A stretch of 64,000 nt of DNA from Bacteroidota bacterium (GCA_026391715.1 JAPLDO010000209.1:1-64000), one strand, 5' to 3'; numbered from the stretch's first letter, positions 3,955-13,031 are shown. A program made the numbers and translations. The notes: generated by a model not told the origin, from the sequence alone.

Positions 3955-6270
3955 ATGCAAACTATTTTTCATCACGACAGCGCCATAAAACATGTTACCG
4001 GTGAATCGGTATTCATTGAAGATATCCTGGTTGACGACCAATTGTTGCATGGAAAGGTTGTTTACAGCCGTCACGCCCACGCTGCCATTACCGCAATTGA
4101 TGTTTCAAAAGCCAGAGCCGTTGCCGGGGTGAAATCTATTCTCACCGCCGCCGATATCCCCGGCGAAAACCAGATGGGACCAGTCTTTCAGGATGAAATC
4201 TGTCTCGCATCCTCCGAAGTTACCTTCATTGGGCAGGCAGTGGCGCTTATTGCCGCCGAAAGCGAGGAGGCGGCGCAGGAGGCAGAAAAACTCATTTCCA
4301 TTGAATACTCGCCGCTCCCGGCAATCCTTGATATTGAAACTTCGATGGCTCATGCCAACCTTATTGCGCCGGAACGAATGATTGCCCGCGGGGATGTGGA
4401 AAATGGTTTAAAAAACGCACCGCATGTAATCTGCGGAACGCTGAAAACCGGCGCACAGGAACACTGGTATCTCGAAACTCAGTCGGCGCTGGCGGTTCCG
4501 GGCGAGGGAAAGGAGATGAAGATTTATGCGTCGAGCCAAAACCCGGCAGAAACCCAGACTATTGTCGCCGAAGTTCTCGGACTTCAGAAGAATGAAGTGG
4601 AGGTCGAGGTCAGGCGAATTGGAGGAGGCTTTGGCGGCAAGGAGACGCAGGGAAATCATGTGGCTGCATGGGCGGCATTGCTCGCGGCCGCCACACGCTG
4701 TCCGGTAAGGATTCACCTCTTCCGCGACGACGATCAGATTATGACCGGCAAACGTCATCGCTTTCTTTCCGAATACGAAATCGGGTTTGATAACAACGGG
4801 TTGATACTTGCTTACAAGGTTGAACTCAATTCCGACGCCGGCGCAGCCAGCGATCTTTCGCGGGCTATCCTCGAGCGCGCAATGCTGCATGCCGACAACG
4901 CCTATTATCTCCCCGTCGTGAGTATTACCGGCAGAGCGTGGAAGACCAATCTGCCGCCAAATACCGCCTTTCGCGGATTCGGCGGTCCGCAGGGAATAGC
5001 TGTAATTGAAAATGCTATTGACAGAATTGCTCGTTTCCTTGGCAAGGATGCTGCCGAGATTCGTTATCTAAATTTCTATGGGTATGATGAGCGAAACCTT
5101 ACCCCTTATGGGCAGACAGTGGAGAACAACCGCATTTTCATGATCTTTGATCAACTTTACGCTTCATCGGAATACCAGCGCCGGCGCGAGGCGATTAACA
5201 AATTCAATGCGGAGAACGAATTTTTGAAAAAGGGCGTCGCCATGACTCCGGTAAAGTTCGGCATCTCCTTCACTTCATCCTTTCTCAACCAGGCAGGGGC
5301 TCTGGTAAATATTTATACCGACGGCACGGCGATAATCAATCACGGCGGAACAGAAATGGGACAGGGGTTGCATACCAAAATCCTGCAGATTGCTGCGGCA
5401 GAGCTTGGAATATCCACTGAATTTGTAAAGGTAAGCGCCACCAACACTTCAAATGTTCCCAACGCGTCGCCCACCGCCGCATCCTCAGCCAGCGACCTGA
5501 ATGGCATGGCTGTGAAGAACGCTATTGACATTCTGAAATCCAGACTTATTCCGCTTGCGGTTTCGGAATTGATGGCGCAACAGCCCGAAATACCTATTTC
5601 ACCGGAAAGTATTGTTTTCTCAGGTAATTTCGTTTTTTCTTCCACTGATACATCTGTAAAGATTTCTTTCGCAAAACTCTGTAAATTGGCGCATCTGAAT
5701 CAGGTCAGCCTCAGTTCCACAGGATTTTATAAAACTCCCGGCATCTTTTTCGACCGCGAAACGGGACAGGGAAATCCATTCTATTACTACTCATACGGCA
5801 TGGCTGTTTCGGAGGTAATGGTTGATGTTCTCACCGGGCGTCACACACTGCTGCGCGCCGACATCCTCCACGATACAGGCGATTCGCTTAATCCCGGAAT
5901 TGATATCGGACAGATTACAGGCGGCTATATTCAGGGCGTGGGATGGTGTACAACGGAGGAGATTAAGTGGGACAATGCCGGCAACCTCCTCACCCATTCG
6001 CCCGACACCTACAAAATCCCCACGATCAACGATATTCCCGTTGATTTCAATGTAAACCTCCTCCGTGATGTTCCCAACCCGGGAACTATTCGCAAAAGCA
6101 AAGCTGTGGGCGAGCCTCCATTCATGCTGGGACTGTCGGTATGGCTGGCAATAAAGGACGCTATTTCGGCTGTTGGAAACCATAAAACCGAACCGGAATT
6201 ATCACTGCCCGCCACCGGCGAAGCGATTGTGATGGCTGCGGAAAAAATTAAATCCTTCAAGAAATGTTAA
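3955..6270 (+). CDS. xdhB: Xanthine dehydrogenase-like molybdopterin-binding subunit
   Basis: 771 aa; GGGFGGKETQ, TAFRGFGGPQG, GQGLHTK and ASPTAASSASDLNG motifs of the Mo-binding subunit. Confidence 0.88.
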   Translation: MQTIFHHDSAIKHVTGESVFIEDILVDDQLLHGKVVYSRHAHAAITAIDVSKARAVAGVKSILTAADIPGENQMGPVFQDEICLASSEVTFIGQAVALIAAESEEAAQEAEKLISIEYSPLPAILDIETSMAHANLIAPERMIARGDVENGLKNAPHVICGTLKTGAQEHWYLETQSALAVPGEGKEMKIYASSQNPAETQTIVAEVLGLQKNEVEVEVRRIGGGFGGKETQGNHVAAWAALLAAATRCPVRIHLFRDDDQIMTGKRHRFLSEYEIGFDNNGLILAYKVELNSDAGAASDLSRAILERAMLHADNAYYLPVVSITGRAWKTNLPPNTAFRGFGGPQGIAVIENAIDRIARFLGKDAAEIRYLNFYGYDERNLTPYGQTVENNRIFMIFDQLYASSEYQRRREAINKFNAENEFLKKGVAMTPVKFGISFTSSFLNQAGALVNIYTDGTAIINHGGTEMGQGLHTKILQIAAAELGISTEFVKVSATNTSNVPNASPTAASSASDLNGMAVKNAIDILKSRLIPLAVSELMAQQPEIPISPESIVFSGNFVFSSTDTSVKISFAKLCKLAHLNQVSLSSTGFYKTPGIFFDRETGQGNPFYYYSYGMAVSEVMVDVLTGRHTLLRADILHDTGDSLNPGIDIGQITGGYIQGVGWCTTEEIKWDNAGNLLTHSPDTYKIPTINDIPVDFNVNLLRDVPNPGTIRKSKAVGEPPFMLGLSVWLAIKDAISAVGNHKTEPELSLPATGEAIVMAAEKIKSFKKC

Positions 6271-8080: not shown

Positions 8081-8797
8081 CTATTGGTTATTTAAAAACT
8101 CTTTCTGGAAATCACACCAAATCTCATCCGGTAATTCTGCCAGCAACTGATCTCTCAATTCGCCCCCATCCTGCATTGCAACCGCAGAGGAGTCGGGCAT
8201 GTGTTTTGGCATCGCCACGGCGAGGAAATCTTTGAATCTTTCAACCTCCTTTTTTGACCAGATTGTTGCCGCATCCGACAGATAGTACGAATTAGTGTCT
8301 GACTTCCAATTATAAGGTTTTATTTTATAAATCCAACCGGTTTCATAAGGATCCTCATTCAGTATCCCTGGTGATTCGATCAGCAGGGAATTTGTTTCCA
8401 TGACCTGTCCCGAAATGGGCGAGAAAATTTTCAACATCTTCCCCTGATGGTCAATTTCAGTCATTAATTCCCCTTTGGCAATAGGCTCGCCTGGTTTTTT
8501 CAAGTAGTTTAACCTTACTTCGCCCGTAATATGGAGCAGCAGATCATCCATGCCAACATCGGCAATACCTGATTTTGAAAGGTGAGCCCAGGTATGACTG
8601 CGGCTGTATAACACGCCCTGCGGAATTTTTAAAATACTGCTCGTAAGGATGCCCATAACCTTTTGTATCTGTTTTTTAATCTTAACCTTCCTGTTCAAAA
8701 TGATTGAAAAAGGAATAAGAAGAGCAAGGAATGTGATGATAATCAGATATTCCATTCCCTTTGTCTCAAAAATGTTGTAATAAGTAAATCCGTCCAT
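8081..8797 (-). CDS. Membrane-anchored GcvH-like (lipoyl-attachment fold) protein
   Basis: N-terminal TM then GVLYSRSHTWAHLSKSGIADVGMDDLLLHITGEV and SPISGQVMETN, as in glycine cleavage H proteins. Confidence 0.8.
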   Translation of the reverse strand: MDGFTYYNIFETKGMEYLIIITFLALLIPFSIILNRKVKIKKQIQKVMGILTSSILKIPQGVLYSRSHTWAHLSKSGIADVGMDDLLLHITGEVRLNYLKKPGEPIAKGELMTEIDHQGKMLKIFSPISGQVMETNSLLIESPGILNEDPYETGWIYKIKPYNWKSDTNSYYLSDAATIWSKKEVERFKDFLAVAMPKHMPDSSAVAMQDGGELRDQLLAELPDEIWCDFQKEFLNNQ

Positions 8798-8843
8798 GGC
8801 TTTATAATTAATAATGATTAATAACTAATAAAGAATTGCTATT

Positions 8844-10073
8844 TTAATTTTTATTTTCCTTGGTCCAGGATGGCGAATCCCGCAAAACCGGCATACGGTT
8901 AATGACCCACCTGAAGATCCATATTTCAGTAAAAATTACCGTAAGCGTTACAACCAGTTCCATCCACGAAGGGACGTACCTTATCGCCGCATCCCATCTG
9001 AAGCCGATTACAGTAACATTCAGCCGGTTCAGAATGATTCCCAGCATGGTTATAATGGCGGCAATACGAATCAGAAGGATACTGTTTCGACGGTAACTAT
9101 AATAGAAGAGGGCCATCGGCAAAAAAACAAAGCCCAGCATTTCAAGCAAATACCAGTATCCCATCGGCGTGTTGAGTAAATCCCAGTGTCTGCCGTGAAT
9201 AAAGACAAGGACCTGAAGGAAAAAGTACGCAAACATCGTCCCGGCGCAGATTTTTGCCAGTCCACATATAATCCCACCCTGCGCCTTGTGATTTTTTTCG
9301 CTTATCTGCCAGAAGAAAACTTTATCGCTGATAGAACCTTCGAAGATAACCATCGAGAGTCCGGCAAAGATGCTTGATACAAAAAACATTATCGGAATAA
9401 ATTCGGAATACCAGAGCGGGTGAATCTTCTCTTTTGCCATAAGATATAGCGCGCCAAGCCCCGACTGATGAAGCGTTGATAAGGTGATCCCGAAAATAAC
9501 CGCGCCAACAGTCATTCCCGAAAGTATCTTATGAATGTGTCTGGTTCCGAGCCATTCAGCAATAGCCGGCGAAAATTCAATCAGTTGGGCGATCATGTAA
9601 AGCAAAAAATGCCAGGCAACGAGGAATAGTACAGAGTTAACGCCGAAATTGTTGCCGATAATGGGGTTAATTACATTCCAGGGGCGACCCAAATCAAGGA
9701 GAAGCGCTCCCGCATAAAACACATACGCAAGAAAACCATTTAGTACAGTTACCCGTACAATCGAATGGTATTTCTTCATGTTCAGGATATAGACCATAAA
9801 AGTGAGAACATAAGCGCCGCCGGCAAACGCTACTCCGGTAACAACATCGAAGCCGATCCATAGTCCCCAGGGAACCTCCTGGGTAAGATTTGTAATAGCG
9901 CCGATCCCTTTCCAGAAACGGATGACAATCAAAACCAACCCCAGCAAAATAATTGGGATGGAAATGATATTAAAAGGAGTAAGCCATTTGCCTTTTGGTT
10001 TAAGTTCGCTTATCAGGAATTTCCATAAAGATTTTCCATCATTGTCAATTGTAATGGGATGTTTTTCGCTCAT
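8844..10073 (-). CDS. HybB/NrfD-like integral membrane quinone oxidoreductase subunit
   Basis: About 10 TM segments; PWGLWIGFDVVTGVAFAGGAYVLTF is HybB-like. Confidence 0.88.
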   Translation of the reverse strand: MSEKHPITIDNDGKSLWKFLISELKPKGKWLTPFNIISIPIILLGLVLIVIRFWKGIGAITNLTQEVPWGLWIGFDVVTGVAFAGGAYVLTFMVYILNMKKYHSIVRVTVLNGFLAYVFYAGALLLDLGRPWNVINPIIGNNFGVNSVLFLVAWHFLLYMIAQLIEFSPAIAEWLGTRHIHKILSGMTVGAVIFGITLSTLHQSGLGALYLMAKEKIHPLWYSEFIPIMFFVSSIFAGLSMVIFEGSISDKVFFWQISEKNHKAQGGIICGLAKICAGTMFAYFFLQVLVFIHGRHWDLLNTPMGYWYLLEMLGFVFLPMALFYYSYRRNSILLIRIAAIITMLGIILNRLNVTVIGFRWDAAIRYVPSWMELVVTLTVIFTEIWIFRWVINRMPVLRDSPSWTKENKN

Positions 10074-10075
10074 GG

Positions 10076-10936
10076 TTATTCCTCCTCTGTTGTTGGCTTA
10101 TCTTTTTTTGTTGCCTGATGAATGCCCAGCAGGAGCGCCGGAAACAGCACAAATACAGAAGGCACGCTGTATAGAAATCCTTTGGTTAAAGCAGGATAGG
10201 AAGCTTTTTGAATGTCGGTTTTAATCCCAAGTTCCTTGAAACTTACAGGTGAAAGGTATAACCAGCAAGTACCGCCGGCTTCATGTTCGCCATAAAGAGA
10301 ATCTACATAAAGCGTAGGATTTTCCACAATCCTTTTACGCGCTTCCTTAATCAATTGACGGCGGGTACCATAAAACAGGGCGTCATTCGGACAATTAGCG
10401 GCACAGGCAGGCATTTCACCGGTTTTTAGCCGGTTGAAGCACATGTCGCACTTCTCGATCTTTGGGTTAGCGCTGTGAAATTCAAACTTTGGAATATCGA
10501 ACGGACAGGAAACCATGCAATAGCGGCATCCCATACATTTATCGCCACGCCAGATAACCGGACCGATTGTAGTTTTATGCATGGCTTGCGTGAGACAGGC
10601 TGCCACGCAGGCTGGTTCGTTGCAATGCATGCACTGCTTTTTAATGAATACTGTCCCTTTGGATGTTTTGTACTCATTAACAACAGTGCGTTTCACTTCA
10701 CTTGTATTGCGAACCATTGGTATCTTTTGACCCGGTTCCGGCAGTGGCAAACCATTGGCTTCGGCGCAGTCATATTCGCAACCCCGGCAGCCTTTGCAAC
10801 GCGCGGAATCGTAAAGTACTCCGCGAAATTCTATGTCGCTGTTTCCATTGGGGGCTGCTTTGAGTTCCCTGCCCACAGTCAGGGCGGCGCCGGTTATACC
10901 GAGTACCTTAAAAAACCCACGTCGGTTAATTCCCAT
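10076..10936 (-). CDS. HybA-like 4Fe-4S dicluster ferredoxin with Tat signal
   Basis: NRRGFFKVLG Tat motif; four Cys clusters (CKGCRGCEYDC, CMHCNEPACVAAC, CMGCRYCMVSCPF, CDMCFNR..CAANCP); C-terminal TM. Confidence 0.9.
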   Translation of the reverse strand: MGINRRGFFKVLGITGAALTVGRELKAAPNGNSDIEFRGVLYDSARCKGCRGCEYDCAEANGLPLPEPGQKIPMVRNTSEVKRTVVNEYKTSKGTVFIKKQCMHCNEPACVAACLTQAMHKTTIGPVIWRGDKCMGCRYCMVSCPFDIPKFEFHSANPKIEKCDMCFNRLKTGEMPACAANCPNDALFYGTRRQLIKEARKRIVENPTLYVDSLYGEHEAGGTCWLYLSPVSFKELGIKTDIQKASYPALTKGFLYSVPSVFVLFPALLLGIHQATKKDKPTTEEE

Positions 10937-10965
10937 AATATTTTGGTTTATATGGCGTTAATTTT

Positions 10966-12660
10966 TTATTTCGAAACATCCATAAATTTCATCTGAAAAT
11001 CTTCCCAAACCTGTGGACCGAAATCAGCCAGGACATTGTCTTTAAGAACGCCGCCATCCTGAAGCGCTACCGGTAAAAACCCCGGAGTATTTACCTGAAT
11101 GGAAAAAGCAAGGAAATCCTTCACACGGGTAAATTCACCTTTTAGCCAGCTCTTATATCTATCGGCCATGGATAAAAATTCTATCTCCCTCAACCAATTG
11201 GATGGTTCAATCTGATAAACCCATCCGTCGGAATATGGAGCGTGATTTAGCAAGGAGGAATTGAGCGTCAACCCATGGTTTTGAGCCTTAATAGTTCCTG
11301 AAACAGGCGCGTAAATATTCAGTTGTTTCCCTTTTTGGATAATGGAGCAAAGCTGTTCCCCTTTTCTTATCCTGTCGCCCTGTTTCTTCATTTCGATACG
11401 TGTGATAGAGCCGGTGATGTGTTGTAAAAAGTCATCAATACCGATTTTTACAGTTCCGTTCTGCTCCATGAATGCCCAGGTATGGGTTTTATCAAAATAA
11501 AGTCCGCCTGGAATGACTACATTATTTTCGTCAAAAATCTTGGATTGGCTGGAACTCATATTTCCGAAGGTTGCTGTTTTCATTTTGTATCTCCTGATCA
11601 TCAAATCAATAATGAAACTGATCACGATTATTACGACAAGAAGTATAAGAATCATACTTGCAATTGAGTTGGGTTCCTTTTGCGATTCAGCATAGATCGG
11701 CTGCCCCACCAATTTATCAAGTTGCGATTGTCTTTCGTTGCTCACGAGGTCGCTATAACCATTGTTCTTCAGAAATACCTGTCCCGAGGTTAAAACCCAT
11801 CGCAGGAATGCAATTTCAGATTCATTGACCGGTTGTGACCTGGTAACAGAATAAATGTTACTAATCAGCGCTTTAGGATATTTTCCTATCCATACGCCTC
11901 TTGAAAAATCTCCTACGTTAGCATAGATATCCTCCATATAATCAAGTTTTCCATTCCCATTCTTATCAATAGGAAGCAGTTGAATGTTCTCTGCCATATT
12001 TTCCGTGTTTGGCGAAAGAATATCTGTCAACCTGCAAAAACCGATGGCATTTGGGTCGCTTTGAAGAGCGGAAATCAGTTCATTCCTGTTTTCACTTTTC
12101 ATTCCTGTCATTGCAGACTTGTTTGCATCGAGAAAACTAGCTACCCCCAATCTTGTAAAATTATCATTAAGAATATAATAATTTACCGGAGCAGTCTGTC
12201 CGTTTTTCAAAAGTGTGCCCCAATTCATAGTTCCGGAAGTTTCCAAACTTTTTACCATAGCTTCACGGGAAATACCTTTCTGAAGAATTTCGGCAAGAAA
12301 AGGATTTTTCGAACTGATAACCGGCGCTATGATTTCCCTGCCGACAACAATCTGAAAAACAGTTTCCTGATTTGGCGCAGTGCGAAACTCATTTGAAATC
12401 AGATATATATTTTCGCCTGTGCCTGGCAACGAGGCAACTCTGGAATCCTCCGTTTTAACGACGTTAATTAATTGTCCAGCCGATGATCTGTCATATTCTT
12501 TTGCCAAAATAGTAGTCAGATCATATAATTCAGGGGAACAGTAAACGCTTATTGCGCCCGAAGAGGGTGGATTGTTTTTGGTGGGCGCTTCCTGACTGTT
12601 AAGAATACTGACACAGAAAAAGAGGAGTAACGCAACGAGGGAAATAATTTTAGTTTTCAT
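10966..12660 (-). CDS. PstS-like periplasmic binding domain fused via a TM to a GcvH-like domain
   Basis: Signal peptide, SBP-like N-terminal region, TM (ASMILILLVVIIVISFIIDLMI), then GGLYFDKTHTWAFMEQNGTVKIGIDDFLQHITG and YAPVSGTIKAQN. Confidence 0.8.
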   Translation of the reverse strand: MKTKIISLVALLLFFCVSILNSQEAPTKNNPPSSGAISVYCSPELYDLTTILAKEYDRSSAGQLINVVKTEDSRVASLPGTGENIYLISNEFRTAPNQETVFQIVVGREIIAPVISSKNPFLAEILQKGISREAMVKSLETSGTMNWGTLLKNGQTAPVNYYILNDNFTRLGVASFLDANKSAMTGMKSENRNELISALQSDPNAIGFCRLTDILSPNTENMAENIQLLPIDKNGNGKLDYMEDIYANVGDFSRGVWIGKYPKALISNIYSVTRSQPVNESEIAFLRWVLTSGQVFLKNNGYSDLVSNERQSQLDKLVGQPIYAESQKEPNSIASMILILLVVIIVISFIIDLMIRRYKMKTATFGNMSSSQSKIFDENNVVIPGGLYFDKTHTWAFMEQNGTVKIGIDDFLQHITGSITRIEMKKQGDRIRKGEQLCSIIQKGKQLNIYAPVSGTIKAQNHGLTLNSSLLNHAPYSDGWVYQIEPSNWLREIEFLSMADRYKSWLKGEFTRVKDFLAFSIQVNTPGFLPVALQDGGVLKDNVLADFGPQVWEDFQMKFMDVSK

Positions 12661-13031
12661 GGCTATGGATTTTTATGTTCATTTTATCCAAAAGGGTAAT
12701 CAATAACAATGCCAAAGACAAAAATATCAGTCTATCTATTTGTTTATCATCTGATTATAAATTGTGATAATGAAAATTAAGCATTATGAAGTGTTGAATA
12801 AATAATCACTACATTTTCAAAATCAAGGTAACATGCTGTTTATCTGTGTAATTAAGTACTCTGTATATATATTCAACACCTGTTGTATATTTCCACACTT
12901 ATAATAATCCCAAAGACGAAATGAACGCAGGTCGTGTGAAAGTAAAGGTTCATCGAAATTTTTTATCGCTTGGTTCTTCATGGTTTACATTTGCCGGTTA
13001 ATTCAGAAAAACATTTAAAAAAAAACTGATC

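What the first reader, a model, noticed from the sequence alone, without database searches (positions are those of the whole stretch)
8081..12660. Operon of HybA-like ferredoxin, HybB-like quinone protein and two membrane-anchored GcvH-like proteins without a catalytic subunit
Seen: four minus-strand genes with gaps of 2-46 bp: PBP-TM-GcvH fusion, Tat-exported 4x[4Fe-4S] protein, NrfD/HybB, TM-GcvH. No hydrogenase, molybdoenzyme or cytochrome is adjacent. Established: HybAB/NrfD pairs link periplasmic redox enzymes to quinone; lipoate-binding GcvH-like proteins serve the sHdr sulfur pathway. Inference: the GcvH-like proteins may be carriers or scaffolds for an unknown extracytoplasmic redox reaction.
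Basis: partly seen in the sequence, partly recalled or inferred. Interest (0 to 1): 0.72.

Follow-up and report, generated by a model that had tools for sequence, protein, structure and literature searches.

The report
Quinone-linked redox signalling operon with H-protein-like parts
Four neighbouring genes in a Bacteroidota genome turn out to be half of a conserved, apparently undescribed signalling operon that couples a membrane electron-transfer pair, a heme-type sensor kinase, a sigma-54 activator and a little-understood protease, using H-protein-like domains that have lost their lipoyl attachment site.

Summary
In detail: four minus-strand genes with gaps of 29, 2 and 46 bp encode a PstS-like/TM/GcvH fusion, a Tat-exported 4x[4Fe-4S] HybA/HmcB-like protein, a HybB/HmcC-like quinone subunit and a TM-GcvH. 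The interpretation changes. (1) The GcvH domains are predicted cytoplasmic (positive-inside in 76/81 proteins; receiver domains sit between TM and GcvH in relatives) and lack the lipoyl lysine (82/84), so they are not lipoyl carriers in the periplasm. (2) In relatives the operon continues with a sensor kinase carrying CxxCH + CxxxxCH motifs (36/36), an NtrC-type sigma-54 activator and an archaemetzincin with an intact motif (37/37). In this genome that half lies on another contig. (3) A -24/-12 sigma-54 element is conserved upstream (19/21 orthologs) and is the only strict match in the window. (4) Five genomes carry PBP-GcvH/kinase/NtrC/archaemetzincin contiguously, same promoter, with no HmcC detected: HmcB-HmcC-GcvH2 is a cassette on a signalling core. 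(5) A sister system fuses GcvH to receiver domains and adds a 13-heme cytochrome. Best reading: a redox-responsive two-component system with an optional quinone-linked Fe-S module and lipoate-free H-protein-fold adaptors. Heme binding, electron direction, ligand and targets are untested.

The parts
12700..12715 (-). sigma-54 type -24/-12 element TTGGCATTGTTATTGA, about 54 nt upstream of the first start codon
   Evidence: Strict pattern TGGCA[CT]N5TTG found upstream in 19 of 21 orthologs (shuffle mean 0.02) and only once in the 64-kb window, both strands
10966..12660 (-). 564-aa fusion: signal peptide, PstS-like periplasmic-binding-protein domain with degenerate phosphate loops (aa ~35-315), TM (aa ~333-355), cytoplasmic GcvH-like domain without lipoyl Lys (aa 387-507) and conserved C-terminal tail (QDGG..L..W.DFQ..F)
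11140..11502 (-). GcvH-like domain of the fusion; lipoyl-Lys column is Gly, Lys at +1
10076..10936 (-). HybA/HmcB-like Tat-exported 4x[4Fe-4S] protein with C-terminal TM anchor
8844..10073 (-). HybB/HmcC-like NrfD-family quinone subunit; HybB residues R89, Y99, E148, H184 conserved
   Evidence: residue roles PMC8076601
8081..8797 (-). TM-GcvH protein (GcvH2), cytoplasmic GcvH-like domain without lipoyl Lys, same C-terminal tail

Best explanation
The four genes are the membrane/redox half of a seven-gene redox-responsive two-component system. Shown by sequence: a signalling core (PstS-like/TM/GcvH fusion, sensor kinase with CxxCH + CxxxxCH motifs in its N-terminal sensor region, NtrC-type sigma-54 response regulator, archaemetzincin) plus a three-gene cassette (HmcB-HmcC-TM-GcvH2) inserted in the core operon and absent from several genomes. 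In this genome the kinase/regulator/protease half has moved to another contig. Inferred: HmcB-HmcC equilibrates electrons between the menaquinone pool and a periplasmic c-type heme; the kinase senses that redox state (and possibly a ligand or partner of the PstS-like domain) through its own hemes; the lipoate-free GcvH-like domains on the cytoplasmic face act as adaptors between membrane complex and kinase/regulator (in the sister system they are fused to receiver domains and so are the kinase's likely targets); the regulator activates sigma-54 promoters, including the operon's own; the archaemetzincin is an output.
For: Operon continuation kinase-NtrC-archaemetzincin in 31 System I loci and on contig C154 of the own genome. 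Co-occurrence in 61 relatives: 31 genomes with the kinase (E<1e-200), all 31 with archaemetzincin; only 2 of the other 30 have one; strong M54 hits follow the module across a 396-genome phylum sample. Motif CxxCH + CxxxxCH in 36/36 operon kinases; own genome has cytochrome-c assembly and RpoN. Conserved sigma-54 element. Core without HmcB/HmcC/GcvH2 in G006, G011, G032, G035, G041. TM-GcvH2 found only in genomes with HmcC (22 of 24). REC-GcvH fusions with DDE, D-x-x-MP and KPF motifs in most members. GcvH domains cytoplasmic, lipoyl Lys lost. HybB proton/quinone residues kept.
Against: No biochemical data. Heme attachment is motif-based; the AlphaFold model of the kinase sensor is low confidence and Foldseek matched only the kinase core. 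Direction of electron flow and ligand of the PstS-like domain unknown (phosphate loops lost). In about 20 distant System I loci HmcB lacks a Tat signal, which a single periplasmic-relay model does not explain. The operon's regulator is assumed, not shown, to bind its own promoter.
Confidence: 0.5

Rival explanations
1. HmcB-HmcC is an ordinary orphan quinol:cytochrome c electron-transfer enzyme (as described for CISM pairs without a molybdenum subunit), and the two-component system merely regulates its expression; GcvH-like proteins are structural subunits or activity regulators.
For: Sister operons add a 13-heme cytochrome next to HmcC and often 16-19-heme cytochromes downstream; Kadnikov et al. 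describe Mros1571/1572 (NrfD/NrfC-like) this way (PMC3534657); HybB catalytic residues conserved.
Against: The kinase, regulator, protease and PBP-GcvH persist with the same promoter in five genomes without detectable HmcC, so regulating HmcBC cannot be the core's only job; no cytochrome partner is conserved in System I.
Confidence: 0.35
2. One reading: GcvH-like proteins are lipoyl (dithiol) carriers or scaffolds for an extracytoplasmic redox reaction.
For: GcvH fold and clear homology; a Lys at +1 of the lipoyl site in 51/84.
Against: Lipoyl Lys column is K in 2/84; predicted cytoplasmic topology; receiver fusions; sHdr GcvH model far below cut-off.
Confidence: 0.04
3. A split remnant of a known enzyme (hydrogenase-2, Hmc) whose catalytic subunit lies elsewhere in the genome.
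For: HybA/HybB homology; the genome does encode a [NiFe]-hydrogenase-family protein and Mo-oxidoreductases.
Against: No catalytic subunit in any of more than 30 related System I loci; the Phs-like Mo enzyme on C154 carries its own Fe-S and apparent membrane subunits; conserved neighbours are signalling genes.
Confidence: 0.05

Closest known systems
HybA-HybB of hydrogenase-2 and HmcB-HmcC of the Hmc complex (CISM/NrfD family)
   Same: Tat-exported 4x[4Fe-4S] protein with C-terminal anchor plus NrfD-family quinone subunit; HybB R89, Y99, E148, H184 conserved
   Different: No hydrogenase or HmcA partner; below NCBIfam equivalog cut-offs; embedded in a two-component operon; distant members lack the Tat signal
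GcvH (glycine cleavage H-protein)
   Same: Fold (TM about 0.76-0.80 on target) and sequence domain PF01597
   Different: Lipoyl Lys lost, TM-anchored or fused to PstS-like or receiver domains, extra C-terminal tail, no GcvT/P next to it
LbpA / GcvH-like proteins of the sHdr pathway
   Same: GcvH relatives outside glycine cleavage
   Different: NF045810 score 42 of 150 needed; no hdr genes in the window; no lipoyl Lys
PBP-kinase-regulator systems such as ArrT-ArrS-ArrR
   Same: Periplasmic-binding-protein-like protein encoded with a sensor kinase and regulator (ArrTSR described in PMC5492636)
   Different: Here the PBP-like domain is fused through a TM to a cytoplasmic GcvH-like domain, and the kinase has putative c-heme motifs
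ZraS-ZraR / AtoS-AtoC type sigma-54 two-component systems
   Same: Kinase core and NtrC-type regulator
   Different: Sensor region with CxxCH + CxxxxCH, no Pfam family; below equivalog cut-offs
Archaemetzincin (peptidase M54)
   Same: HExxHxxGxxHCx4CxMx17CxxC intact in 37/37; NF033823 above cut-off
   Different: Genetic linkage to a redox two-component operon, which I did not find described in the papers held

Membership tests
HybA/HybB-HmcB/HmcC electron-transfer pair | Tat signal, four [4Fe-4S] Cys sets, C-terminal TM (B subunit) | tested here: met
   RRGFFK, 17 Cys, C-terminal TM in the window protein
HybA/HybB-HmcB/HmcC electron-transfer pair | Functional HybB residues R89, Y99, E148, H184 | tested here: met
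   invariant in alignment of E. coli HybB with the window protein and four relatives
HybA/HybB-HmcB/HmcC electron-transfer pair | NCBIfam equivalog score cut-offs (HmcB, HmcC, HybA, HybB) | tested here: not met
   303.5/420, 391.7/550, 215.7/263, 245.8/450
HybA/HybB-HmcB/HmcC electron-transfer pair | Adjacent hydrogenase or HmcA-type cytochrome | tested here: not met
   none in the window, none conserved in System I relatives; a 13-heme cytochrome only in the sister system
GcvH (lipoyl carrier) | Lipoyl-accepting Lys | tested here: not met
   K in 2/84; own canonical GcvH keeps it
GcvH (lipoyl carrier) | H-protein fold | tested here: met
sHdr GcvH-like proteins | NF045810 score and hdr-gene context | tested here: not met
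   42 of 150 bits; no hdr genes adjacent
PstS phosphate-binding protein | Type II PBP fold | tested here: met
PstS phosphate-binding protein | Phosphate-contacting loops and Pst transporter genes | tested here: not met
   SGAFAL, GGAGKG and RSDACG loops of the own PstS are all replaced; transporter genes only at the real pstS (C254)
NtrC-type two-component system | HisKA/HATPase kinase with REC/sigma-54 AAA/HTH regulator and RpoN in the genome | tested here: met
c-type heme sensor kinase | CxxCH-type motifs in the sensor region and cytochrome c assembly genes | tested here: met
c-type heme sensor kinase | Covalent heme and redox response | not testable with these tools
   needs purified protein
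Archaemetzincin | Extended zinc motif and NF033823 cut-off | tested here: met

The most novel reading that the evidence does not exclude
A previously undescribed class of membrane redox signalling system in which a lipoate-free H-protein fold has been recruited as a signalling adaptor or response-regulator output on the cytoplasmic face of a quinone-linked Fe-S module and a diheme sensor kinase, with an archaemetzincin as dedicated effector.
Probability: 0.35. Interest if true: 0.8.

Novelty: new variant of a known kind. Interest (0 to 1): 0.62.

Why it matters
If right, it gives orphan HybAB/NrfCD pairs in Bacteroidota a regulatory setting, shows an H-protein fold reused outside lipoyl chemistry as a signalling part, offers a genetically linked physiological context for bacterial archaemetzincins, about whose biological importance very little is known (PMC3427221 abstract), and predicts a redox-to-sigma-54 pathway that can be tested in one operon.

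Tried and rejected
Strict canonical sigma-54 scoring (first with a spacing slip, corrected) missed the window; the alignment of upstream regions then showed the conserved TTGA variant. A tblastn search of plasmid records for the receiver-GcvH fusion gave ordinary response regulators at the top; plasmid matches to HmcC shown were HybB-like at about 30% identity. Kinase sensor fold: inconclusive. Literature searches for a description of the system gave none; one search failed on syntax. Idea that HmcB and HmcC were only missed by ORF calling in some loci: rejected, gaps of only 16-256 bp remain between the PBP-GcvH gene and the kinase.

Full report
OBSERVATION. The four minus-strand genes are real, at the coordinates given, with gaps of 29, 2 and 46 bp. 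Pfam and NCBIfam give GcvH, 4Fe-4S, NrfD and GcvH, with HmcB/HmcC and HybA/HybB as best named relatives, all below the equivalog cut-offs. The Fe-S protein has a Tat motif, 17 Cys and a C-terminal TM. The HmcC-like protein keeps R89, Y99, E148 and H184 of E. coli HybB, residues whose replacement lowers hydrogen oxidation (Lubek et al., cited in PMC8076601). A quinone-linked subunit is therefore likely, though not shown.

TOPOLOGY AND LIPOATE. In 76 of 81 GcvH-like proteins with a preceding TM, Lys/Arg are more numerous on the GcvH side of the TM, so the GcvH domain is predicted cytoplasmic and the PstS-like domain periplasmic. The lipoyl Lys column is Lys in only 2 of 84 module proteins, while the organism's own canonical GcvH keeps it. 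The fold is still that of the H-protein (AlphaFold model; Foldseek).

THE PBP DOMAIN. It is PstS-like and related to the organism's own PstS (C254, in a pst operon), but the phosphate-contacting loops are replaced in every ortholog aligned. An EF-hand-like stretch (DKNGNGxLDxxE) is shared in large part with the own PstS. Its ligand is unknown.

THE OPERON IS LONGER. Around 27 homologous loci from named MAGs and 20 loci from distant Bacteroidota, clustering of neighbours showed that HmcB-HmcC-GcvH2 is followed by a sensor kinase, an NtrC-type regulator and an archaemetzincin. By motif-based gene typing 31 System I loci show kinase, regulator and archaemetzincin downstream of HmcC on the same strand. 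The kinases carry CxxCH plus CxxxxCH in 36 of 36 cases; the archaemetzincin motif is intact in 37 of 37 and the family cut-off is passed. In the window's own genome the same three genes lie together on contig C154, so the operon is split here. A Mariniphaga genome shows a similar split (L088; kinase, regulator and protease on another contig).

CO-OCCURRENCE. Of 61 related genomes, 31 have the kinase at E<1e-200 and all 31 have an M54 protein; 2 of the other 30 do. In a 396-genome sample of the phylum the strongest M54 hits fall mainly in genomes carrying the module, with more divergent, mostly longer proteins elsewhere.

PROMOTER. Aligned upstream regions of 21 orthologs share TTGGCA[CT]N5TTG[A/C]; the strict pattern is present in 19 of 21 (shuffle mean 0.02, maximum 1) and occurs once in the 64-kb window, at 12714 on the minus strand. 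RpoN is encoded. Some distant operons have matches directly upstream of the kinase gene.

DISSOCIATION. In genomes G006, G011, G032, G035 and G041 (and L066, L068-L070, L084 from MAGs, some of which may be the same genomes) PBP-GcvH is followed directly by kinase, regulator and archaemetzincin, behind the same promoter element in those five genomes, and no HmcC is found in those five genomes. TM-GcvH2 is strong (E<1e-70) in 22 genomes, all with HmcC; 24 genomes have HmcC, the other two being fragmentary or cut by contig ends. So the first GcvH fusion goes with the signalling core, and GcvH2 goes with HmcBC.

SISTER SYSTEM. In other Bacteroidota (L108, L125-L129, L131, L133, L134) the order is HmcB, HmcC, 13-heme cytochrome, kinase with the same motif, REC-GcvH, TM-REC-GcvH. 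L131 carries both systems side by side. A receiver domain fused to GcvH, and lying between TM and GcvH, places GcvH in the cytoplasm and in the signalling path.

MECHANISM. Shown: gene content, order, motifs, promoter, co-occurrence and dissociation. Inferred: heme-based redox sensing by the kinase, electron exchange of HmcBC with the quinone pool, adaptor role of the GcvH-like domains, autoregulation through sigma-54, archaemetzincin as output. The main rival is that HmcBC is the regulated enzyme rather than a sensor input; the dissociation data weaken but do not exclude it.

NOVELTY. Each part belongs to a known family; the combination, the receiver-GcvH fusions and the archaemetzincin linkage were not found in the papers searched. 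The library holds only open-licence papers and searches outside Bacteroidota were not possible, so a prior description cannot be excluded. Hence 'new variant of a known kind'.

Noticed in passing
L091-L110, L131, L138-L140: In about 20 distant System I loci HmcB has no Tat signal, and the second GcvH protein is mostly soluble with an N-terminal four-Cys motif CxWxxxGxxxYKLCDxxFxCxxC (18 of 20 examined). Tat-bearing HmcB goes with a TM-anchored GcvH2 instead.
   Followed up: partly
L108, L125-L127, L133, L138: Large multiheme cytochromes (11-19 CxxCH) and a c554-like four-heme protein cluster next to the sister system, suggesting a link to long-range electron transfer.
   Followed up: no
own genome C154:23252-26972 (L151:7253-10973): A Tat-type PhsA/PsrA-like Mo oxidoreductase with Fe-S and apparent membrane subunits lies about 9 kb from the relocated archaemetzincin/regulator/kinase half.
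   Followed up: partly
L141:9053-10015, L142:8232-9209: A different GcvH fusion in the same family: a Cys-containing N-terminal domain plus a GcvH domain that keeps the lipoyl-site Lys.
   Followed up: no
L166, L167, L169: Two tandem copies of the kinase gene in the same operon (G034, G058, G003).
   Followed up: no
window 3955-6270: Lone xanthine dehydrogenase molybdenum subunit XdhB immediately followed by crcB; the gene upstream is YicC-like, so no small XDH subunit is adjacent.
   Followed up: no
mostly 'same class' genomes: Divergent, mostly longer (about 280-350 aa frames) M54-like proteins occur without the operon.
   Followed up: no
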